From positions 5,176,641 to 5,240,640 of the forward strand of contig NC_134961.1 of NCBI RefSeq assembly GCF_965638725.1: a stretch of 64,000 nt of DNA. Direction: 5' to 3'. Below, piece by piece: positions 19,140-46,600 of the stretch (its first letter is position 1; every line of letters starts with the position of its first letter). The translations under genes and the position numbers were made by a program. The notes below the pieces were generated by a model. It did no database searches. It was not told the origin of the DNA and was given only the letters and a program-made list of their open reading frames with translations. Source of the DNA: Aptenodytes patagonicus (taxonomy: Eukaryota > Chordata > Aves > Sphenisciformes > Spheniscidae).

Positions 19140-22100
19140 ATGGGCAAGGACCAGGAGCTGGTGCAGGCGGTGAAGGCGGAGGACGTCGCGGCCGTGCAGA
19201 AGCTGCTGCAGAGGCCCAAGCCCGGCAAAGCCAGTGAGTGCCGCGGCGGCGGGGCCGGGCCGGGCCGGGCCGGGCCGGGGGCACCGCGGCGGGGGCGGGG
19301 GGGGGGTGACCGGCATCGCAGCAGCGGGCGCGGCGGCTCGGGGCCCACATCCCGCCCGCTGCTCCCGGAGCCCGGCCGGGATGCCGCCCTGCCCGGCCCA
19401 GGAGCATCCCCGGCCCTTCCCCGGTGCGGCGCGGCGCGGGCGGGGGCCGTAGACGTGCCAGGGACCCCCGGCGGCGCCCCGGGGGCGGGGAGGGGGGGGG
19501 GCAGCCCGGCGAGGGGGCTGGCGGCCGCGGAGCGTTCCTGGGCGCTGCAAGGGTGCTCGGCGCTGCACAGGATCGCCCCGCCGGTCCCGGTGCAACCCCC
19601 GGCCCGGCCGGGCACCGGCCCGGCTGCCCTTGCCCTGCGCCCGGGAGCAGCTCCCGAGCGGCCGGGGAGCCGGGCCGGGCCAGTGCACCCGGGGGGCTTG
19701 GCCTGGGCATGGGCACCGGCGAGGGCAGGGGGCTGCGGCCGGGCAGGCAGGGCAGAGCTGGGGGCACCTGCGTGTGCGTGGAGCGTGTGTGCACGGACCG
19801 TGCGCGTGTGCACCGGAGCTGCCAGTGCCTGCACACATTTGCATGTGTCTGTGTGCGTGTGGCTGTGTCTGTGCGCGTGTACGTGCGTGCTGGGTGTGCA
19901 TGTGTGTCTGTGTTTGGGTGCGTGTCTGTGTTTGTGTATCGGTGTGTACCCTGGCATATGTGTGTTTGGATGTGGCTGTGTTGGTGTTTCTCCGTGTGGG
20001 GGTGTTTGGATGTAGCTCCATGGGTATCTCCCTGTGTGCATCTCTGCGGCTGGGTTTGCACGTCTCCGTGTGTGCACCCGGGTGTGTGTGTGTCCAGGCG
20101 TGAGGCTGCGGGGGTGTACGTGTGTCTGTACGTGTCTATCTGTGTGTGTACGTGTGTGTAGCTCCATGAGTATCTGCTCTCTGTACGATATAACTGCTCT
20201 GTTGAGGCGTTCCACCCGGGACTGAATTATTCATGGTGCTGATGCAGCCGCAGGTTTCAGGCCTGGCGCGCGGGGCTGACACGGGGGGCCGGGGACCATC
20301 CCTGGGCACAGGCAGGGACCACGGGGAGCACTCGCGTGGCATCGGGTCACTGGGCACACAGCCCCTTTGCCACTGCACCCCGCATCCCTCCCTCCTGGGG
20401 CCCAGCGCTCCCCGAACGTGGGCACCCCCGTGTCCCTGGAGCCGTGCAGGGCTGGTGCGGCGTCCCCCATCCTTGGTTGTGCAGGGGTGTTCCTGGCCGA
20501 GCAGGGCCAGCGTGGTGTCCCCCGTGTCCTGGTGCCGAGCAGGGCTGGCGTGGTATCCCCCATGTCCCCACTGTAGTGCAGGGCTGGCACGGCGTCCACC
20601 ATGTCCCCGGTGCCGTGCAGGGCCGGCGTGTGGTCCCTTGTGCTGTGTAGGGCTGGTGTGGTGTCCACCATGTCCTGGTGCTGTGCAGGACCAGCGTGGT
20701 GTCCCCAGTGCCATCGTTGCTGTCGCTGCCGAGGGCCTGTGTGGGGAGAGAAGAGGCTCCAGCTCAGAGCCCCCTTCATCCCAACCCGCTCCAGGTGCTG
20801 CCGCTTCCGTCACCTCTTGGAGCGGCGTGTGGGGACAGGGGTGACACCTGGCCTGTGCCCAGTGCTATCTCCCCCACACCCCTCTCCAATCCCTTCTGGC
20901 CCGGGCGCACAGCTGGTGTTGCTGTGGCAACGGCCAGCGGTGCCGGAGTGCCACCACCTCCTCCCGCATCCCTCTCCTTCCCGGCACCGCTCTGCTGCAT
21001 CTCCCGCCGCGGCCACTCTCCCGCTGCAGAGCCCTCCGGCTGCCGGGCACTGCTGGGCGGGATGGCTGCTGGGGCTGGCGGTGCTCCCCGTGCTGGGCTC
21101 GCGGGCGAGGGACAAGGGACCCCCAGCAAGGCCGAGCCCGGCCAGCCTGGCACTGGGGAGATTCCTGCTGTGGGCCTGGAGGCTTGCCCTGTGCCCCGGC
21201 TGGGCTGCACGTCTCCAGCTCTGCCGGACCCCCACCCCCGGTGCCGGGCTGCTCTTGTGCAGTTTCCCCGCAGGACCCGACTCTCCTGCCCGGCAGCAGG
21301 GCCGTGTGCGCGGCAGTGGGTGCCATGCTCTCGGCCTGGGGTGCATGAGCACCTCTGGCCGCAGCAGCAGGGCTAGAGGAGCAGGGCATGGCATGGGGTG
21401 GGAGAGCACCAAGCAGGGGCTGTCCCCATGCCGCGGTGTCCCCACATCCCCCATCCCCTCCACGTGCTGGTCCCACGCATGCCTCCGGTGCTCCCTGCGC
21501 TGCGCGGCACCAGGAAGATTTGTAACTTAGCTCTGTTATCTGGATAATATCCTATTCATGTGGGGTTTAATAAATGAGATTTTAAAAATCCCTGCGTGAA
21601 TTAACACGGGTTGCTATGGTGACGTGGGGCCCGATTTAGCATGTGGAGTACGAGTTTGTGGGGCCCGGGCCGGCCGCAGCGCGCACCGCGCTCGCTTCCC
21701 GGGCATCCATAATTGATGAGGTTGTCTGAAAGTTACGCAAATCAGATGCAGGGATTTGGCAGCAAACTGTTTCCCTTCCTGTCCCCTCCTCCCTACTGCT
21801 ACCTCGAAGAATTGTAGTGACTTGGCGTTTTCCCCTTGGCTCCCTGGCTCGGGCACCGTGGGACGGGACGGGGCCCTGGGGTGTCCCCAGCAGCGTCCGT
21901 GCCCGCCATACCATCCCCATCCCAGGCACCCGGGGCTTCAGGCAGTGGGAGATGGGGCTGTGCTGTGCAGGGAAACCACGGTTCCTCGGCCGTGGTGTGT
22001 TGGAGCAAGCAGGCTCCTTCCTTCTGAGGCCGGTGCTGCTGGCGGCTCATCTGCTTTGGAAACGGCTTCTGCGTGGCACCTACCGGTGCCGCGGGAGGGA

Positions 22101-25100: not shown

Positions 25101-28100
25101 GGTGTGTGCCGCTGTACCGGGACTGGGCATTGCTGGTGCTGGGCACCGCTGGCCATCCTGAAGAGTCGGGGCTGGTGAGCCTCTGGCTGAATGCTGGCCA
25201 TGAACCTGCTGCGTGCTGCTCTCACCAGCTGGCGGCTAAAGGTGCCTTTTGCAAGTGTTCAGACACCGTCGGGAGAGCGTTGGAGAACTAATTTGCTGGT
25301 ATTTAATGGCTGATGCTGTTACTGCCGGGCCAGGATCCTGCGGATGAGGGAAAGGCGCTGGGAAGTAAAACCTGCTCGGGAGCGCCCAGGCTCGTGCCGG
25401 CCTGCGCGGATGCTGCTACTCCATCACTACTTTGTCCCCCGGCTGCGGCTGAGCATGCCGTGAGGACGGGCTGTGCCAGGCTGGTCACCGAGCCGGTGTG
25501 CAGTGCCAATGTCCACCTCTGCCCCGGGTTTCTGTCCTGTTCTGCAGCTGGGACACGTGGGACTCACCCTCCTGGTCCCCTCTCCCCAGAGGGATGGGGG
25601 CCAGCGCAGCCCGCCTGGCGCAGGAACGATCCCGCCGGCGGGCTGGCTCTTCGTGTCGGGCTGAGAGGGATCTTTAAGCCGTAATGAAATGTTAATAGTA
25701 TTTTCCAACTCAATACGGGAGTAGAAAATGAGGTGTTTAACGCTGGGCTCCGCAGCGACAGGAGCAATCAGCCTGAGAAATGGGAAGCTGGCGATGCAGC
25801 GCTGGCCTCGGCACAGCCTGACAGCCCCATGCTGCCAGGCCTGCTCCGGTGATGGATGGGTGCCGGTGCCCGGCACGAGCCACCCGGCCAGGGAAGCACG
25901 GTGCTGGAATGGTGTGGGAGAGTGGCTGGCAGGGTAATGCTGAATCTGCCTGGGTCTCCTTGGGTCTTGCCGGCAAGGTCACTACTGGCCGCCTGGTGAG
26001 AACCGAGCAGATTGAGGTGGTTGTGGGCCTGGGGTGCCCCGGGGCGCAGCAGGCTGATGGGACCCCAGCTCTGTGCCCTGCCATGGCCCATATCAGCTGG
26101 AGACAGAGTAGGTTGGAGCTGTTGCCCAAGCAGCTGCCACGGGCACAGCCCAGGCACTGCTTCTCCGAGCACCATGCCCACCGGCGGCTGGCTGCTCTGC
26201 ACCAGCGCTGCTCTGCCAGCGTGCATCCGTGTGCGCCTGTGTGCATCCGTGTGCATGCATGTGCCCGTGTGCATGCGTGCATCCATGTGCATGCATCTGC
26301 CCCTGTGCATCCATGTGGATGCATGTGCCCATGTGCATCTGCCCCTGTGCATCCGTGTGTGTTATGTGCCCCTGTGGATCCATGTGCATGTGTGTGCCCC
26401 TGTGCATCGTGTGCCCATGTGCATCTGCCCAGTGCATCCGTGTGCCTGGGGCCATCTCTGCTGGTCACTTCGGCAGTGCCTTCTCCCTGGCCTGGCATGG
26501 GGCTCAGTGCTGGGGACGGCTCTCGGCAGCGGCAGTGGCAGCCGCCGGCTGATCCCTTCCAGATGTGGCTGCTGGGAGCCTGGCTCCGTGCTGCCTCCTT
26601 GCCGAGGCCCCCGTAGGTTTTTGGTCCGTGGCTGCTGGAGCCGTTGGAGCAGACAAAGCAGCTGCCTGCCTGGCTCCTGCATTGCAGCTGGGCTGTTTAC
26701 GGCACGCTCCTCGCGGCTGTGCAGCTCCGCAGCAGCTATTCTCCCGGCTGTCTCCACTCCAGTGTGCGCGGATCCTGGAGGTGTCTGTGACTAAGCCCCG
26801 GCTCCCAGCAGGGATGGGGCAGGTGGTCCCGCACTGCCCCTGCCAGCCCCCCCCCAGCGCCCACTGTGCTGGGGACACTGGGGACACTGGGACGGGTCCT
26901 GTGAGCCCTGCCCTTCCCCTGCAGCACTGCCAGGCCCTCGGGAGCAGTGTGACGCCTCCGGCCAGGCTTCCAGTGCTCAGGGCAGTTGCATGGCATCGCC
27001 TGGCTGCACATCCACATGCTGCCTATCCACCCTGGCAATGACCATGGCATCACTAAACTGCCAGCCCATGCTCCCACAGAGCTGCCCATCACCATGCCCG
27101 TCCTGCCTGCAGGCACCGCCGGGAAAGCCGCCACAGTGCGGAGGGTGCATGGGTGGGCACGGTGCACCAGCGCGCGCGGAAGCCAGGCTGTTATGTGGAC
27201 AAGGACAAATGATGGCACTAAAGGGACCGTTTTTAAAATAGACCCCAGGGCCTGTTTTACCCACGTATGGCGTGGAAGCTCAGAGCCCAGTGCTGCAGCA
27301 TTGCTTATTGCCCTCTTATTTATCTGGGCTGCCCGCATGCACACGCATGCACACAGGCACATGCTCTATTTATGTCGGGGAGCTCCCCACGACTTCCCAG
27401 TGACATCTGGACTGTGGCTGGGTTTGTGGGAGGCCAGATGATAGTGACTATTTGTTATTTAACAATGCTTTAAGATACACAGAGCTACTGGTCCCTCCCT
27501 GCAGGGCAGCGTGGCTGGGGTCAGTCCTCCCAGGGCTCCCTGGCCCTGTGGAGGAGATGAGGAGGATGGAGACAGGGCCAGGCAGGATCGCCTCTGCCCC
27601 AGGGTGGAGGCGAGTGGTGCCAGCATCTGCCCCTCTCTGCTTCCTTGTCCTGGGCAGCCTCTGCTCGGGCACCAAGGCTGCTCGGTGCCAGCCATGCTGG
27701 GATGAGGACTCAGGGATGGACAGGCAGACGCAGGCTGGCGGTGGCCCCACGCAGCCCCGTCCCGTCCCCTGCCGTGGCAGCCTCGCTGTGCCGGCGGTGA
27801 CTCCTTCCAGCCAGGGTGATTACTGAAAATTACCTGTTTGCCGCCGCCCCGGCGTGGGGAGGGCAGGCTGTCAATTAAGGCTCCGTGGAAGCGGCACCAA
27901 CACGCATTTCTGCAGAGACGAGGGTGGGCGTACGGCTGGCACCGGGCCAGCGGCGACAGGCGCAACAGGGCTGGTGTGATGCTTGGTGCTCGTCCTGCGG
28001 GGCCGAGCGTGGCACCCCGTGTCCCACCTGCAGGGCCAGAGCCAACGCATCACTGCGCTGCCTGCACCCCTGCCCATCCCTGCTGCCGGCTTTCCTGCAT

Positions 28101-37600: not shown

Positions 37601-40600
37601 CGCGGACGGTCCCCAGGTTCTCGGCTCTGCACCATGCGGCGCTCAACGGCAACACGGAGCTCATCTCGCTGCTGCTGGAGGCGCAGGCTGCGGTGGACAT
37701 CAAGGATAACAAAGGTGAGTCCTGGCATCCTGGCCGTGGCCCCCCACCCCTCTGTAGGCTCTGGCCGGGCGTGTCAGCGTGCCGGGGGGGCTGACGGCGT
37801 GCCTGTCCTGCCCGCCCGCAGGCATGCGGCCCCTGCACTATGCGGCTTGGCAAGGCAAGAAGGAGCCCATGAAAATGGTGCTGAAAGCGGGTTCCTCAGT
37901 GAACATCCCATCGGACGAGGGCCAGATCCCCCTGCACCTGGCAGCACAACACGGGCACTACGACGTGGTACGGTGGGGCCGGTGGCAGGGCACGGAGGTG
38001 GCAGGGGGGCCGTGCCGCCCTCCCTGCTCCTGCCCTCGCCGAGCTGGAGTCTCGCTCCTCCGCAGTCAGAGATGCTCCTGCAGCACCAGTCCAACCCCTG
38101 CATCATGGACAATTCGGGGAAGACGCCTCTGGACCTGGCATGCGAGTTTGGCCGGGTCGGGGTAAGTCCTTGCAGCGCCGGGACCCCCAGAGAGGAAGAT
38201 TGGGAGGGGACAGGGGCATGGCGAGGTCCCTGGGGGTGCTGGAGCAGCCTGGGGGGGCACAGGGCAGCCCCCCGGGATGGCTAGCGGTGGGGACCTGCAG
38301 TGCCACCGCTGCGGGGGATCTCTGGCTGCTCGAGGAGGGGCAAGAGCAGGGAGGGGAGGTGGCGGCCGGGGGGGTCCGCAGCCCCGGCAGGCGGCTGAGC
38401 CGCCCTTGCAGCCCTGCTCCATCTGTGTTTGCTGAGCCAGGTGGTCCAACTGCTCCTGAACAGCAACATGTGCGCGGCGCTGCTGGAGCCCAAGCCGGGG
38501 GACGCCACTGACCCCAATGGCACCAGCCCCTTGCACCTCGCCGCCAAGAACGGCCACATCGACATCATCCGGTGGGTGCCGTGGGTAGGGAGGGCAGCGC
38601 CGGTCCCCCCCCGCCTCGCTGACCCCACCGTCTGCCCGCAGGCTCCTGCTGCAGGCTGGTATTGACATCAACCGGCAAACCAAGGCGGGCACAGCGCTGC
38701 ACGAGGCGGCCCTGTGCGGCAAGACGGATGTGGTGCGGCTGCTGCTGGATGTAAGGGCCCCCCCGACACCCCCAGACGCCCCCAGCCCAGGGACGGGCTG
38801 CGGGAAGGGAGTGACTCCACGGCTGGGGGCTGCGGAGCAGCGTGTGCACCTCTCCTGGGGGATGGGGGCAAGGGTCCTGGGGGGGGACACACCAAGGCAG
38901 TGAGCCGTGTCCTCCGGCTGCTGGTCTCGGTGTGGCCCGGGGGGTCCCGAGGAGTGGCGGGGCGGGGGGCAGCCTCCTCCCAGGTCCTCTCCGTGCTGTT
39001 GCAGAGCGGGATCAACGCCCACGTCAGGAACACCTACAACCAGACAGCTTTGGACATCGTCAATCAGTTCACCACCAGCCAGGCCAGCAAGGAGATCAAG
39101 CAGATGCTGCGGGGTAGGGGGGCCGGGGGGGGCACGGGGCTGCTGCACCGGCGCTGGGGGGATGCCAGGCTGGGGGTGACAGCCCCCTGGGGCTGGGTGG
39201 CTGGCAACGCTCCCGCTCTGTCCCTGTAGACGCCTCCGCCGCTCTGCAGGTCCGGGCCGTCAAGGACTATTGCAACAACTACGACCTGACCAGCCTCAAC
39301 GTGAAAGCTGGGGACGTCATCACCGTGAGTATGGCCGGGGGGGGGGGGCCGGGGGGACCCCACTGGCGGCACCGGCCCCTGACGCAGCCCCTGCCCGCAG
39401 GTGCTGGAGCAGCACGCGGACGGGCGCTGGAAAGGCTGCATTCACGACAACCGGACCGGCAACGACCGCGTGGGCTACTTCCCCTCCAGCCTCGTCGAGG
39501 CCATAAGCAAACGAACAGGCAAATAATCCCACCCCCGCCTCCCCTGTGGGGATGCCCCCAAACCCACAGCCCCAGGGAGTCCCCGTTTTGGTCTGGCGGT
39601 GCCTGGGGTGTCGGGGGGGGGGGTGGGGATGGGGGTGTGCAGCCAGTGAAGCCAAGCTGGGGCGATGCCCCCGTCATGCATGTGGGGTCGGTGTCCCCGC
39701 CGTGTGCATGGGGACACTGCCTTCGAGTGTGTGGGGCTGGTGTCCCCGTTGTGCATGTGGGGTCGGCGCCCCGTGAAGTGCATGGGGATGGTGTCCCCAT
39801 TGTGCATGTGGGGCTGGTGTCCCCATCAAGTGTGCAGGGTCAGCGTCCCCATTGTGCATGTGGGGCTGGTGCCCCCACCGAGTGTGCGGGGTCACTGCCC
39901 CTGTTGTGCCTGTGGGGTCGGTGCCCACCTGGTGCACGTGGGGGTTGGTGCCAGCAGCCCCGGGGTGCTCACGGGGCAGCCCCAAGGCCAAGCTGGCGTT
40001 GGGCTGGGGGAGGCATTTGTGGTGCCGGGAGGTTGGTGCATGGGGAGAGCCGGGGTCATCACTGTGGTTTGGGGGGATGTGTGGCGCAGCGGTGAGGCCA
40101 CAGGACCTGGTGCTCGGGGTCTGAGCAGGGGGGCTGGGCACCGGTGCCAGGGACCCGGCGCTGCCCCATGGGGACCCTCTCCCTGGCCAGGGGCCGTCTC
40201 AGGGATTGGACCCTGCTCCCCTGCCCTGCGGCTGCCTGTCCCTGTCCCCATCCCCATCCCTGTAGGCTCCCGGTGGGGTGCGCGGTCCCCCAGGATGGCC
40301 TGTGGCTGTGCCCGCTGCCAGAAGCGGTGCAATGGGGCTGGTGCCTCTGCGGGCAGCGTTGAAAGGCCCCGCATCGACTGTCTCGCTCCCCCCCCCCGGC
40401 AGCCGTGAGCTGCCTGGCCCCACGCGATCTTGGGGGCAGCCACGTCGCTGGGGCACGGGCAGGGAATGGCGGCACTTGAACAAGGTCCCAGGGGAGTGGC
40501 GACACAAGTGCCTGCTGGCTGCCGGGCACTGCCGCACCAGCCACGGAGGCTGCAGAGGTGCCATGTGCCGGACGGGCAGGGGCAGAGCTGCCCTCCGGGT

Positions 40601-43600
40601 GTGAGTCGTGTGCCAGTACCACGGGGATGAGGTCCGTGGCTCCTGGGATACAGCTGGCTCCGCAGCAGCGTTTGCCAGGGTGTGGGGTTTTGTAGCCATC
40701 CCATCAGCTGCAGCCCTTGGCCCCGTGCAGCGGGGTGGCAGCGTGGGGCGCAGGCGGCGGCTGCACCAGGGCTTGGCCAGCTGGGCACGGGGGTGCTGGC
40801 GCTGCAGCCCCCAGCGCAGCCGTGCCTGCAGCCCCCCTCCTCCCAGGATGCCTTCGTGGGGAGCAGGACCCCTGGCAGCCCGGCTGTGGGAGCCCCATGG
40901 CACCGGGAGCCCCACAGTGATGTTGTACCTCAAGCACGGGGCTCCCCCGGCGTCCGTGCCCTGCCGGGCAGCCGTGGCGGGTCTGCGGGATGTGCCCGCG
41001 GGCTGTATGCTGCCACCGGGCTGGGCTGTGCGCTGAGCTCCCGCTGCTGCTCCTTGGTTCGGCTCCGCATCGGTTGGGTCTCGGTTCTGGCTTCTCCATG
41101 TTCCTTTGGTTGCTTTTTTGTTTGCTGCTTTTTTTTTTCCTTTCTTTTTTTTTCTTTTTTTTTTTGGTGGCGCTGAGCGTGTCTCTATTATTTTGATTCT
41201 TTTCATTTTGTCTCTTGTTATGTTTTATTATCAGGTTCATGGGAGACTGTAACAATCCCCCAACAGTACCAAAAGATCCCGCTCCCGGCTTACGGGGCTG
41301 CTGTGCTAAACGGTGACGCCTCGTCCCATCCGTTCCATTCCCTGCCTCCACCTCCACCTCCACCACCACATTCCCATCAGACTCTTTTCAGTTCCTTTGG
41401 CTATCACAGGCTCTCCCCTAGCAGTGCCGACGAGCCGCGTTACGGACAAGGTAGTTCACCGCTCGCTTCGTGCTCTCGATGGATTTCTTTCTTTTCCTTT
41501 AAAGTGTGTATCGAGTCTTTTCTTTCTGCTCGGCCTCTCTCCCCCTTGCCGTGGTGTGTTTGCACGCGGGTGCGTGCAGGCGTGTGCAAGTGCGTGCATG
41601 TGGGTGCGTGTATGTGCATGCAGGCGTGTGCATGTGTGTGTGTGCATGCAGGCAGGCGTGTGCGTGCAGTGCGTGCAGGTGCGTGCACGCGTGCATGCCG
41701 TCGGCCCCCTCCCCTGCACGCCGTCTCCAGTGCTGCTGTAGCACTGCGGCCCACGGCTCTGCTGCCGGCACATCCCACCCTCACCACCCCGGTGTCCTTG
41801 GCTGCGGGGCAGGGCTGGAGGCAGCACGGTGCTGCCGGCTGTCCGCACTCTGCTCATGGCCCCTGCTCTCCTGCCCCCCCTTGTCTGGGTGTGTGGGGAC
41901 CCCCAGAAACACTCTCCAGGCTCTGTGCCAGGGGGCAGGGCTGGGCAGCGCGGTGCCCGGCCGGGAGCCACGGGCGCAGGCACCCTCTGCAGCCTCCCCT
42001 GCAGGGTGTTCGACACCCAGTGAGCCGCTCTAAGCGGGTCAGGGCTGCGTGCTGAGAGTGGGAAGGGGCTGCGGTGCCGGGCATGCTTTCCTGGGGGATG
42101 CTCTCAGGGCTGGCTCAGCGCAGGCAGTGCCCAGCTAAACCCTGGGGACCATCCCCGCGGCGCGGGCAGGTGACGGATGCTGCAGGTCTATGTGTCGGGA
42201 GCGCCCGGAGAGCATATATTTGGCAGGGGGGTTTGCAGCAGTGCAGCACACACCATGCTCACAGGGGCTGCCACCAGCTGGCTGGGGGCTGGGGGTCTTT
42301 GCATGTGCCCCTGTGGCGGTGGCGCAGCAGGTTGTGTTGGGAGAGCACCGGGCTGGTCATGCTGGTGATGGGGACAAGGGAGCAAAACTTTTCCCTGGGG
42401 CTTTCTCTCCCTGCTGGGTCGCACTGAGCCTTACGCCTGCCTGGGCAGCGCGGGCTCCTCTCGGTGTGACCGCAGCACGTGCAGCTCAGGGACGTCCCAG
42501 CCTGATTGTGGCGTGGCCGTTTGTTCCCCCTCGCGCTCCTTCGGTGACTTTGTCACCTTGTACCATCCGCCCCCTGCTACGGCCCGGCCGCTAATGGGGC
42601 GAGTGGCTTAACGAATGAAAACAGCCTGGGCAGCGGCAGGGTGGCGATGCCCCGTACCTGGTGGCTGGCAGCGGGGCCGGGCTGAGCCGGGCTCCTCGGC
42701 AGCTGGCAGCGGGGCTGCGGCAGGACCGGGCCTCGCAGGGCTGTTGTCCATCTCATCTGATGCTGTTTTAAACCCCGGGCTCAGCGCTGGCCGTTCCCGG
42801 CCGGCCCTGGTGCGAGCAGGACCTGACAGAGGCGGGCAGCGCGGTGAGCCGGTGAAGGAGCGGTGCTTCGAGGGTGACCCTCGAGCCGTGCCCCACCAGG
42901 AGGGCCGGGTCCTCTCGCCCACTGTCGCCAGCTGCCATGGGGCACCCTGGGAAGCGCGGGGGGTTCAGCACCTGGTGCCTGGCCCCACGTGGCCCCTGCG
43001 TCCTCCCCCAGACGGGTGCAGGCAGTTGCAGGGGCATGGCCAGCGCCGTCTTGGCCGGGGCACTGTGGAGAGGGGGACCCTGCTCCCCACTGCTCAAGTT
43101 TGCGCGGCTCCCTTTGCTCCCCTGCACCAGGTCATGTCCCCATCCTGCTCCGCACAGGGACGACACAGTCCCTGTCCCCTGTCCGGGCTGAGCTGGGGCA
43201 CTGGGACATCCCACCACAGGTCTGTCCCCGGCTGGTGGCAGGGAGGGGATGCCCTGCAGGACAGGGTCCCAGGGCTGGTCGCTGTCACCCTGTGCCAGCT
43301 GCTTGGGGCGGGGGGGGACAGGCCCCCGGGACAGTGCGGACATCCCTGGGCACGGCCACGGCCAGGGACCCCACATCTTCGCTGTGGGGTTTTCCCCGAG
43401 TGCGGCAGCGACAGGCCCCGGGGCTGCGGGTCGCCTCGCCCTGTGCCACACCGATGCGAGCCCGAGCGCGCAGAGCCACGCATGCCTGACGGCTGCTCTC
43501 TCTGCTCTGCCACCAAGGGTCCCGCGGGGCCGACATGAGCCCGTCCCACCTCTCACCGTCGCAGGGCGGATCGGGCGCTCCAGCTCCCACGGAGGAGATC

Positions 43601-46600
43601 TGGGTGCTGCGGAAACCCTTCACAGGTACGGTGGGTGCGCTGCTGGGACCCTCCCTGTCCCTGGGGGGGGTCATGTACCAGGACATGGCAGTGGCTCTGG
43701 CGGGACATGGCCACACTGCGGCATCCCCCAGCCTGGCCATGGGGCTCAATGCCCTGACGGCATCTCCTCTCTCTGTGCAGGTGGCGACCGCAGCAGCCTG
43801 GGCAGCACGGGCAGCGTGGCCTCTGCCCGCAGCTCGGGGAGCGGGCAGAGCGTGGGCAGTGGGGCGCATGCCCTGCACGCTGGCTCTGAAGGCGTCAAGG
43901 TAAGGCGAGCCCTGACGCGGCTGTGCCAGCCTGCGGTGGCACTCGGCTCTAGTCCCGGCACTGGCGCTTGCCCTGGGGCAGGCATTTGCTGCCTTGGCAG
44001 CTGCCCCTGGTCCCTGCTGGGGTTGATGCTTGGCCAGGTGCTGTGAGGTCCTACCGGCACCCAGCGTGCCACCAGCCGTGGCTGTCACCGATGGTGGCTA
44101 CCAGCATGTCCCCTCCTGGCTGGCCCCCCGACTGCTGGCTGGGCCTGGGCTCAGCCCCTGGCACGACGTCCTGCCGCGCTGCAGGACCGGGCAGGGGCTG
44201 CCTGCAGCGTGTGCAGGGTCCGGCCGAGGCTGCGTGCCGTGCCTCTGCTGCCGCTCGCAGGGTGCCTCCGCACTGCGCACTGCCTGCTGCGCTGCACGCT
44301 GCGCTGCATGCTGTGTGCTGCCACCGGCATGCTGCCCGCTGCAGCTCCGCACTGCACAGAGCCGTCTGCCTGCTGCTGCCAGCACACAGCCCACTGCATG
44401 CTCCTGCCTGCACGTTGCACGCTGCGCACTGCTGCCTGCACATTGCGCACTGCTGCCTGCACATTACGCACTGCACGTTGCTCACTGCACCCTGCAGCCT
44501 GGGGTGTCCCGTCCCCGGGCTGAGGCACCTGCGAGCCCACCTCCCCCGGCATCCTGCCTGCGTTAGGCCAGAGCAGGCTGGGCACCGGGATCCGCGTACC
44601 CCTGAGCCGAGCACCGTGCTGACGGCCGTGGGGGCTCTGCTTTGCGGGCGAGGGGGGGGGGTCCCTGCAGCCCGCTCTGGCAGCCTGGGCTGGGCGTGCG
44701 TCAGGCTGGATTCGGGGTGCCGCGGCACCGCGGGCTCCCGCGCCTGCGAAGCACCATCTGTGCTGCTCCCGCTCTCCCCGCCGCAGCCCGAATCTGCTGC
44801 GCCCCTCCCTGCCCACCCTCACCCGGGCTGGCGGCGGGGCGGCCACCGCAGCACCCGCAGCACCCACAGCACCCGCGGCACGCGCCCCCCGCCGCCTGCC
44901 CGCCTCACTCCTGCCTGCTCTCCCCCCTTCCCGGGGTGTTTTTCAGCTGCTGGCAACGGTCCTTTCCCAGAAGGCTTCTGCGCAAGAGACTGCCGTGGGC
45001 GATGGGCCGGCCAAGGCGCAGGACATCCCCGCAGGTGCGTGCTGCCAGCCGCCCGGCTGCCGGGAGCAGGAGGAGCCCTGGCCCTGCCGCGGGCGTGCCG
45101 TGGATCCAGGGATTTGTCTTTTTTTTTATTGCCACGGCACCCGTCGCCAGAAGAAAAACGTGTGGGTAAAAAATGACTCTCTCGCCTTTCGGCTGCTGCC
45201 AGGCCTTCTCCTGCCTCGGTTAGTGGGGGCCCCGTGGGGGGCGGGGGGGGGCGGCGCGGGCGGGCGGGGGGCGGCAGCGCTCCTCCCCAGCCCCTTCCCT
45301 TCTCTGGCCCCCCGCCAGCCCCGCCGGAGCCCGAGCTGGGGGTCCCCCCCGCCACTGCCAGCACTGTCCGGGGGGCCACGGGCGGGGGCTGCCCTGGTAG
45401 CGGGGAGCATGGCCACACCGCGGGGGTGCCCACGCCGCGGGGAGGCACGTGCTGGGGGTGGGGGGGGGCAGACGGGAGATGCACATGCGGGGAGGATGCA
45501 CACGTGGGAGATGAACGTGCGGGGGGATGCCCGGGCTGCGGAGATGCACACGCAGGGGGGATGGAAACCCAGGGCGGGGGGATGCGCACACGAAGGTGGG
45601 GGGATGCACACATGGAGGGGGGATGCACACGTTGCCGGGGGGGGGGAAGCACATGCTGGAGAGATGCACATGCAAGTGGGATGCAGACGTGAAGGAGATG
45701 CACATGGCAGAGGGATGTACATGTGAGGAGGATGCCCACGCAAGTGGGATGCAGATGCCAGAAGGATGCACACACGGAGGATGCACACACACACGGGGGG
45801 GGATGCGCACACACACACACACGGGGGGGATGCGCACGCACACACACACATCGGATGCTCATGCGCACACACACACACACACGGGGGGGGAAATGCACAC
45901 ACATGGAGGGTGCAGTTGCCAGCGGGAGGGAAGGGGCTGGTCTTGCTGGTCCTGATCAGAAATTTCTGGGCAGCCCTCGTCACCCCCAGGGCTGGTTAAG
46001 GCACCAGTTGGAGGGTGGGCGCCTCAGGGCTGCCTGGGTGCCTGTACCGGCGTCCTGGGGGATGAGGCAGCTCGTGCCAGCCCAGCCGGGCCGCTCGCTG
46101 TGGGGCACAGCGGGTGAACAAGCCCTGTCCTGGGTTGGTGGCATGGCCGGAGGAGCAGGGACGGAGGGCTTTGGGCAGTGGGACCCTTCTGACTGCTGCC
46201 TTGGGAACCAGGGAAACCCGCTCTGCTCCCGCTGCAGCTGGGTGCCTCCGCTCGGGGCCACGCTGGGTGGAAGGTGTTGCGGCACCCCGGCCCCCGGCTG
46301 GGCTGGGGGCTCGCCTGGCTCTGGGGGGGTGGGCAAGGGCAACAGCATGGGCTGCCCCAGCAGTGCCATGGCACCTGGGAGCTGTGTACACCATGGTGCT
46401 GGTGGCCGGGCGCCCTGCAGAGCCCCATGCAGATGCAGCCCTCGCTGTGAGCCCCGTGCCAGCGCGGCCAGCCTCACCAGGATTCAGCAATAGGGTTTGC
46501 GACCCAACGGCAGTGCCTGGGCATGGTGCCCCGCACCACTCCTGCCCGTCCCGGGGGAGCAGACCCCATGTCCAGGGCACCCCAGGGTGCTCCGGGCTGC

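What the first reader, a model, noticed from the sequence alone, without database searches (positions are those of the whole stretch)
41117..41700. Unlisted neuronal-type cassette exon in CASKIN1 between the SH3 domain and the CASK-binding motif
The sequence shows a 216-base open exon (41235-41450) with good splice sites, phase 1 on both sides, matching the phase of the exon 10/11 junction. It adds 72 residues with an eight-proline run. A long pyrimidine tract precedes it and five TGCATG motifs follow within 250 bases. PTB-type tract upstream plus RBFOX-type sites downstream is the known layout of exons switched on in neurons. Its third codon positions are far less GC-rich than those of neighbouring exons, suggesting constraint on the nucleotides. 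Inclusion would lengthen the linker in front of [10 protein letters not shown], the motif that binds CASK, and add a possible SH3 or WW ligand. I infer a switch in CASK binding or self-association.
Basis: partly seen in the sequence, partly recalled or inferred. Interest (0 to 1): 0.8.

Follow-up and report, generated by a model that had tools for sequence, protein, structure and literature searches.

The report
Probable skipped exon in CASKIN1 gene
A bird gene for a synapse scaffold protein very probably contains an extra optional exon that would add a proline-rich stretch next to the part that binds a partner protein, but whether the exon is really used, and only in neurons, needs RNA data.

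Summary
The exon is in the sequence as described: 41235-41450, 216 bases, open, phase 1/1, in the 4-kb CASKIN1 intron between the second SH3 exon and the CASK-binding (CID) exon. Splice sites plus open frame are weak evidence here: five other intronic pairs score as well or better. The surroundings are stronger. The two most T-rich 100-base stretches of 19140-52000 flank the exon; four UCUU lie on each side, against none beside 12 other CASKIN1 exons examined. Segmentation on T content alone puts boundaries 3 and 16 bases from the splice sites. A genome search finds the 216 bases once. I judge it a real, probably alternative exon with a PTB-type layout. The RBFOX argument is weak: the five TGCATG lie in a tandem repeat, and two similar clusters occur elsewhere in the gene. 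Low GC3 is real but not a coding signal. A CASK-binding switch is unsupported; an EVH1/profilin-type ligand is the better guess. No other vertebrate genome and no RNA data could be searched.

The parts
39401..39518 (+). CASKIN1 second SH3 exon (upstream exon), ends in phase 1
   Evidence: tblastn with recalled probe; joined with the first SH3 exon it matches PDB Caskin-1 7aty
39519..39520 (+). GC (not GT) donor dinucleotide, CAG|GCAAAT; in-frame TAA at 39524-39526 if read through
   Evidence: sequence; 2.5 bits, lowest of 14 exon donors scored; CASKIN2 paralogue has GT, 8.5 bits
41090..41234 (+). T-rich tract (62% T) with four UCUU, 54-base AG-free run before the acceptor; PTB-type
41235..41450 (+). 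candidate cassette exon, 216 bases, phase 1/1, 72 codons, contains [14 protein letters not shown]
   Evidence: one match in the genome search, one strong protein match
41451..41550 (+). downstream T-rich flank (42% T) with four UCUU within 100 bases
   Evidence: one match in the genome search over 41451-41560
41595..41697 (+). five + strand TGCATG in or at the edge of GTGCA-type tandem repeats
43518..43625 (+). CID exon ([11 protein letters not shown]), downstream exon
   Evidence: Pfam PF16600 when joined to the next exon, E 2.5e-26

Best explanation
It is a genuine, phase-neutral cassette exon of CASKIN1. Step 1 (shown in sequence): an open 216-base exon with compatible phase lies between two pyrimidine-rich flanks unlike those of the 12 other exons examined. 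Step 2 (inferred): where PTBP1/2 is high, it binds UCUU-rich RNA on both sides and the exon is skipped; where PTBP falls, as in mature neurons, the good acceptor is used. The weak GC donor of the preceding exon and the moderate donor of the exon itself would make inclusion tunable. Step 3 (inferred): inclusion inserts a 72-residue, probably disordered segment between the SH3 domain and the CASK-binding motif. Its likeliest direct function is as a docking segment: LPPPPPPPP fits the EVH1 (Ena/VASP) and profilin ligand pattern (recalled) and would link the scaffold to actin assembly. The CASK-binding motif itself is left intact.
For: Gene identity. Open frame and matching phases. The exon frame is the only open one of six in this stretch and has the best codon score of the six. 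Flanks: T fraction 0.63 upstream and 0.42 downstream per 100 bases, UCUU 4 and 4, against T of at most 0.20 and UCUU 0 and 0 at the 12 other exons examined (exon 1, exons 7 and 8 and those after SAM2a were not in that call). These hold the two most T-rich 100-base stretches in 19140-52000, 0.67 and 0.45, the third being close at 0.44. Lowest-GC 450-base windows of that span. T-only segmentation gives 41232 and 41466 against the exon 41235-41450. Shuffles of 41090-41560 yield an open exon of 150-400 bases with about equal or better sites in 10 of 1000, or 16 of 1000 when flanks and exon are shuffled each in place. The exon and the downstream flank have one match each in the genome search; the upstream flank matches four other places, only over its T-run region. 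PTBP1/2 binding upstream polypyrimidine tracts and repressing neural exons: passages of review PMC10551640.
Against: No RNA or cross-species evidence was available. Codon score plus open frame is matched by 198 of 5000 shuffles, and other stretches of the same intron score higher. Five other intronic AG/GT open pairs score as well or better on both sites. The frame is open far into both neighbouring intron stretches. No codon-position GC signature. Intronic windows as GC-poor as the exon are 377 of 4747; they form 16 places, 14 in intron 1 and two flanking the exon. No similarity to the position-equivalent CASKIN2 exon. The exact exon boundaries are not the top segmentation: rank 574 of 69006 on T, 808 on four letters, and 20019 on A content. 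The recalled mammalian reference Caskin1 protein lacks this segment. EVH1/profilin binding is a recalled pattern only.
Confidence: 0.62

Rival explanations
1. Real exon, but constitutive in this lineage, or alternative without neural PTB control: the T-rich tracts simply make a strong acceptor and the exon is included in most transcripts.
For: The acceptor scores 8.8 bits, exceeded by 4 of the 14 exons scored beside it (there the best site within 12 bases of each tblastn edge was taken). A T-rich upstream tract is normal acceptor material. CASKIN2 has, as read from the DNA, one linker exon in the same place and phase.
Against: UCUU-rich T tract also downstream, which a constitutive acceptor does not need; donor only moderate; the recalled mammalian protein lacks the segment.
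Confidence: 0.2
2. No exon: an AT-rich, pyrimidine-rich conserved or drifting intronic patch in which an AG/GT pair and open frame occur by chance.
For: Chance pairs exist elsewhere in the introns; open frame plus codon score is matched by 198 of 5000 shuffles; no codon-position signature; the frame stays open from 41177 to 42055; segmentation on A content does not favour the exon.
Against: T-content boundaries lie close to the splice sites on both sides; shuffled islands rarely give such an exon (10 or 16 of 1000); flanks unlike those of the 12 other exons examined and the most T-rich of the gene.
Confidence: 0.17
3. Inserted retrocopy or repeat: the T run is the poly(A) tail of a minus-strand insertion.
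For: Long T run 41129-41165.
Against: The 216 bases have one match in the search of the 1.35-Gb genome, themselves; the downstream flank has one; the upstream flank matches elsewhere only over its T-run region; no Rfam match overlaps the exon. The tool warns that no further match does not prove rarity.
Confidence: 0.01

Closest known systems
PTBP1/2-repressed neuronal cassette exons (class described in review PMC10551640, passages read)
   Same: CU/U-rich tracts in flanking introns, phase-neutral exon, gene for a synaptic scaffold
   Different: No expression or CLIP evidence; downstream RBFOX-type sites lie in a tandem repeat; the exon is long (216 bases), not a microexon
CASKIN2 linker exon (L007 3858-4040, same genome)
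   Same: Same position directly after the second SH3 exon, phase 1/1, proline-rich linker
   Different: No sequence similarity above shuffles (3679 of 5000 reach the score); CASKIN2 shows one linker exon before GDRN, CASKIN1 has the candidate plus the CID exon; boundaries read by eye
Known Caskin1 proline-rich region that binds Abi2 (PMC3549760 and PMC11166458, passages)
   Same: Disordered proline-rich ligand segment in the same protein
   Different: The known region is in the C-terminal part; the candidate sits before the CID and has LPPPPPPPP without flanking basic residues
ENAH joined to an ABI1 stretch (PDB 7lxe; 'EVH1' recalled)
   Same: FPPPPPPPP aligned to the candidate's LPPPPPPPP
   Different: E 0.086, composition-driven; not homology

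Membership tests
Coding cassette exon of CASKIN1 | Open frame, length divisible by 3, phase matching the flanking junction | tested here: met
   216 bases, phase 1/1
Coding cassette exon of CASKIN1 | Splice sites within the range of the gene's other exons | tested here: met
   acceptor 8.8 (14 other exons 1.2-13.2), donor 6.0 (14 other exons 2.5-12.2); recalled matrix
Coding cassette exon of CASKIN1 | Codon-position composition of a coding exon | tested here: inconclusive
   no GC position dependence; best and only open frame of six, 198 of 5000 shuffles as good
Coding cassette exon of CASKIN1 | Conservation of frame and splice sites in other birds or vertebrates | not testable with these tools
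   no other vertebrate genome is held; prokaryote and viral collections gave no relative
Coding cassette exon of CASKIN1 | Junction reads with and without the exon | not testable with these tools
   no RNA data
PTBP-repressed neuronal exon | UCUU/U-rich tracts in flanking introns beyond ordinary exons | tested here: met
   4 and 4 UCUU, against 0 at the 12 other exons examined
PTBP-repressed neuronal exon | Inclusion rises when PTBP falls | not testable with these tools
   no RNA data
RBFOX-activated exon | UGCAUG downstream in excess over local background | tested here: inconclusive
   5 seen; 2.2 expected from the local repeat (124 of 5000 reach 5), 0.7 from 41451-41700 (0 of 5000); two similar clusters elsewhere in the gene
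SH3 (PxxPx[RK]) ligand | Basic residue flanking the PxxP core | tested here: not met
   by eye on the translation: no R or K beside the proline run
EVH1 class I / profilin ligand | [FL]PPPP or long poly-P with a hydrophobic lead (pattern recalled) | tested here: met
   [14 protein letters not shown], by eye; pattern only, binding untested
Homologue of the CASKIN2 linker exon | Sequence similarity beyond composition | tested here: not met
   3679 of 5000 shuffles reach the score (2748 of 5000 with the proline run shortened); position and phase agree

The most novel reading that the evidence does not exclude
Birds (perhaps vertebrates) control, by a PTB-gated cassette exon, whether Caskin1 carries an Ena/VASP-EVH1 or profilin docking segment immediately before its CASK-binding motif, so that splicing decides whether the CASK-neurexin scaffold is coupled directly to actin assembly; the exon sits where CASKIN2 has its only linker exon, so the two paralogues may have divided a common linker.
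Probability: 0.1. Interest if true: 0.55.

Novelty: new member of a known kind. Interest (0 to 1): 0.38.

Why it matters
If real, it would be a Caskin1 isoform that my literature searches did not turn up, in a synaptic scaffold that binds CASK. Searches pairing caskin1 with cassette exon (0 papers), microexon, rbfox and exon, ptbp, spliced (of which 12 listed) and alternative splicing gave lists in which no title or abstract opening speaks of such an exon; most listed papers were not opened, supplements were not searched, and subscription journals are not held. It gives a concrete, cheaply testable exon, and a caution that functional work on Caskin1-CASK may have used a skipped isoform. As a kind of thing it is ordinary: synaptic scaffold genes commonly have regulated cassette exons (recalled).

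Tried and rejected
Conservation outside this genome: scans of prokaryote genome contigs and viral contigs with the exon protein found no relative. A second scan with an ankyrin exon gave 3 bacterial loci in genome contigs and none in viral contigs, so no stray vertebrate contig to compare.

CASKIN2 homology: a recalled human CASKIN2 linker (409 of 2000 shuffles as good; 1116 of 2000 with the proline run shortened) and the CASKIN2 exon of this genome (3679 and 2748 of 5000) gave no similarity; the CID exon against the CASKIN2 exon gave none either (943 of 5000). Rejected as sequence homology, kept as position and phase equivalence.

Repeat or retrocopy origin: disfavoured by genome searches. 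Weak protein matches elsewhere in the genome (30 besides itself at E up to 10): the four translated (L010-L013) show proline runs, or glycine runs on the strand read, and no homology by eye; the other 26 were not looked at.

Non-coding RNA: 4 Rfam matches, all below the gathering score, none on the exon; two lie on the downstream repeat. Pfam and PDB with the exon protein: only weak matches.

Exon looped out by paired repeats: of the 25 longest inverted pairs shown (of 35), 16 do have one arm on each side of the exon (15-35 bases, 71-93% complementary) and none joins the 39.7-kb and 41.6-kb TGCATG arrays. No chance expectation was computed and this was not pursued, so looping is not excluded.

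Peptide text search in papers: nothing. A first GC3 comparison used two misframed exons and was replaced, which has 12 segments and leaves out SAM2b. My note gives the in-frame TAA one base off; 39524-39526 is right.

Full report
WHAT IS THERE. The window lies in a 1.35-Gb genome of 618 contigs at C13:5176641-5240640; size and contig lengths fit a bird (inference). The + strand from 19140 to about 52 kb (the end is approximate) is CASKIN1: exon-by-exon tblastn with a recalled Caskin1 probe, joined SH3 exons closest to PDB Caskin-1 7aty, CID exon joined to the next exon matching Pfam Caskin1-CID at E 2.5e-26. The intron between the second SH3 exon (ends 39518) and the CID exon (starts 43518) is 4.0 kb. 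In it, 41235-41450 is flanked by TTATCAG and GTAGTT, is 216 bases long and opens in the frame set by phase 1 on both sides. Included or skipped, the reading frame is kept (...SKRTG-SWETV...RYGQ-GSRGAD... against ...SKRTG-SRGAD...).

HOW STRONG IS THE EXON BY ITSELF. Moderate. The acceptor scores 8.8 bits and the donor 6.0 bits with a recalled consensus matrix, inside the range of 14 other exons of the gene (for these the best site within 12 bases of each tblastn edge was taken). In the four intron stretches scanned, five other open phase-1 pairs are as good or better on both sites, two of them overlapping or just after the candidate. The exon frame is the only open one of six and has the best codon score of the six, yet 198 of 5000 dinucleotide shuffles are open with as good a score, and other parts of the intron score higher. 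Long open frames are common here because the DNA is GC-rich: 49 stop-to-stop frames of at least 60 codons, both strands, overlap the intron, and the exon's own frame stays open from 41177 to 42055.

WHAT MAKES IT CONVINCING. The surroundings. The 100 bases before the exon are 63% T and the 100 after are 42% T, with four UCUU on each side. At 12 other CASKIN1 exons examined, the same flanks have at most 20% T and no UCUU (exons 1, 7 and 8 and those after SAM2a were not in that call). The two most T-rich 100-base stretches of 19140-52000 start at 41130 (0.67) and 41463 (0.45), the third, at 19909, being close (0.44), and the region holds the lowest-GC 450-base windows. A segmentation that sees only T or not-T places the boundaries at 41232 and 41466, against 41235 and 41450; the exact exon ranks 574 of 69006 segmentations. 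With four letters the best cut is 41230-41462 and the exon ranks 808 of 69006; on A content alone it ranks 20019 of 69006, so that measure does not agree. Shuffles of the island give an open exon of 150-400 bases with about as good sites in 10 of 1000 cases, and 16 of 1000 when the flanks and the exon are each shuffled in place. The genome search finds the 216 bases and the downstream flank once each; the upstream flank has four partial matches elsewhere, all over its T-run region. So a repeat or retrocopy is unlikely, with the tool's caveat that absence of a match does not prove rarity.

WHAT DOES NOT HOLD UP. The five TGCATG at 41595-41697 lie in or at the edge of tandem repeats. Given the repeat stretch 41560-41700, 2.2 are expected and 124 of 5000 shuffles reach 5; with the wider stretch 41451-41700 as background 0.7 are expected and 0 of 5000 reach 5. 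Windows with five or more per 250 bases also occur at 26076-26505 and 39559-39954. RBFOX control remains possible but is not evidenced. Low GC3 (38 of 71 against 393 of 456; four-fold sites 19 of 41 against 200 of 235) is real, but the exon's GC does not vary by codon position (p 0.44): compatible with constraint and equally with non-coding DNA. Intronic windows as GC-poor as the exon are 377 of 4747, in 16 places, 14 in intron 1 and two flanking the exon.

The upstream exon's donor is GC with A at +5 (CAG|GCAAAT), 2.5 bits, the lowest of 14 exons scored; the paralogue CASKIN2 in the same genome has GT and 8.5 bits at the same place. Reading through it meets an in-frame TAA at 39524-39526. GC donors are often found at alternatively spliced junctions (recalled). 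It could also be a polymorphism or sequencing error.

PARALOGUE. CASKIN2 was found at C16:188495 and read. It has, as read from the DNA, one linker exon (L007 3858-4040, 183 bases, phase 1/1) between SH3 and the GDRN exon. The candidate occupies the equivalent position and phase, but no sequence similarity exceeds shuffles.

FUNCTION. [14 protein letters not shown] fits the EVH1/profilin pattern (recalled); a weak phmmer match to an ENAH-ABI1 chain (7lxe, E 0.086) rests on the proline run. Caskins are already tied to actin regulation through Abi1/Abi2 (PMC11166458, PMC3549760, passages). [quoted passage not shown] that it is [10 protein letters not shown] rests on recall and the Pfam CID match. 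It begins about 24 residues after the candidate, in the next exon, and is unchanged by inclusion, so an on/off switch of CASK binding is not expected; a modest tether effect is possible.

REGULATION. Review PMC10551640 (passages): PTBP1/2 bind CU-rich sites, often in upstream polypyrimidine tracts, and repress neural exons; RBFOX bound downstream promotes inclusion. The layout here fits the PTBP part. All regulatory steps are inferred.

LIMITS. No other vertebrate genome and no RNA data are held; the decisive tests are listed separately. Literature searches on caskin1 or the peptide cover open-licence papers only and were judged by listing and abstract opening; one search looked for the regulatory layout; passages were read.

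VERDICT. Probably a real, alternative, PTB-type exon of a known kind; interest moderate.

Noticed in passing
39519-39520: GC donor after the second SH3 exon of CASKIN1, weakest donor of 14 exons scored, with an in-frame TAA at 39524-39526; CASKIN2 has a strong GT there. Retention of this intron would give an ankyrin-SH3-only protein (inference).
   Followed up: partly
39658-39943: 26-base and 51/52-base tandem repeats rich in GTGCATG upstream in the same intron; a further TGCATG cluster of this gene lies around 26252-26390.
   Followed up: partly
L007 3858-4040: CASKIN2 of the same genome has, as read from the DNA, a single 183-base phase 1/1 proline-rich linker exon where CASKIN1 has the candidate and the CID exon.
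   Followed up: partly
41410 and 41505: Two further acceptor-like AG sites (10.4 bits each on the recalled matrix) inside and after the candidate exon, possible alternative acceptors.
   Followed up: no
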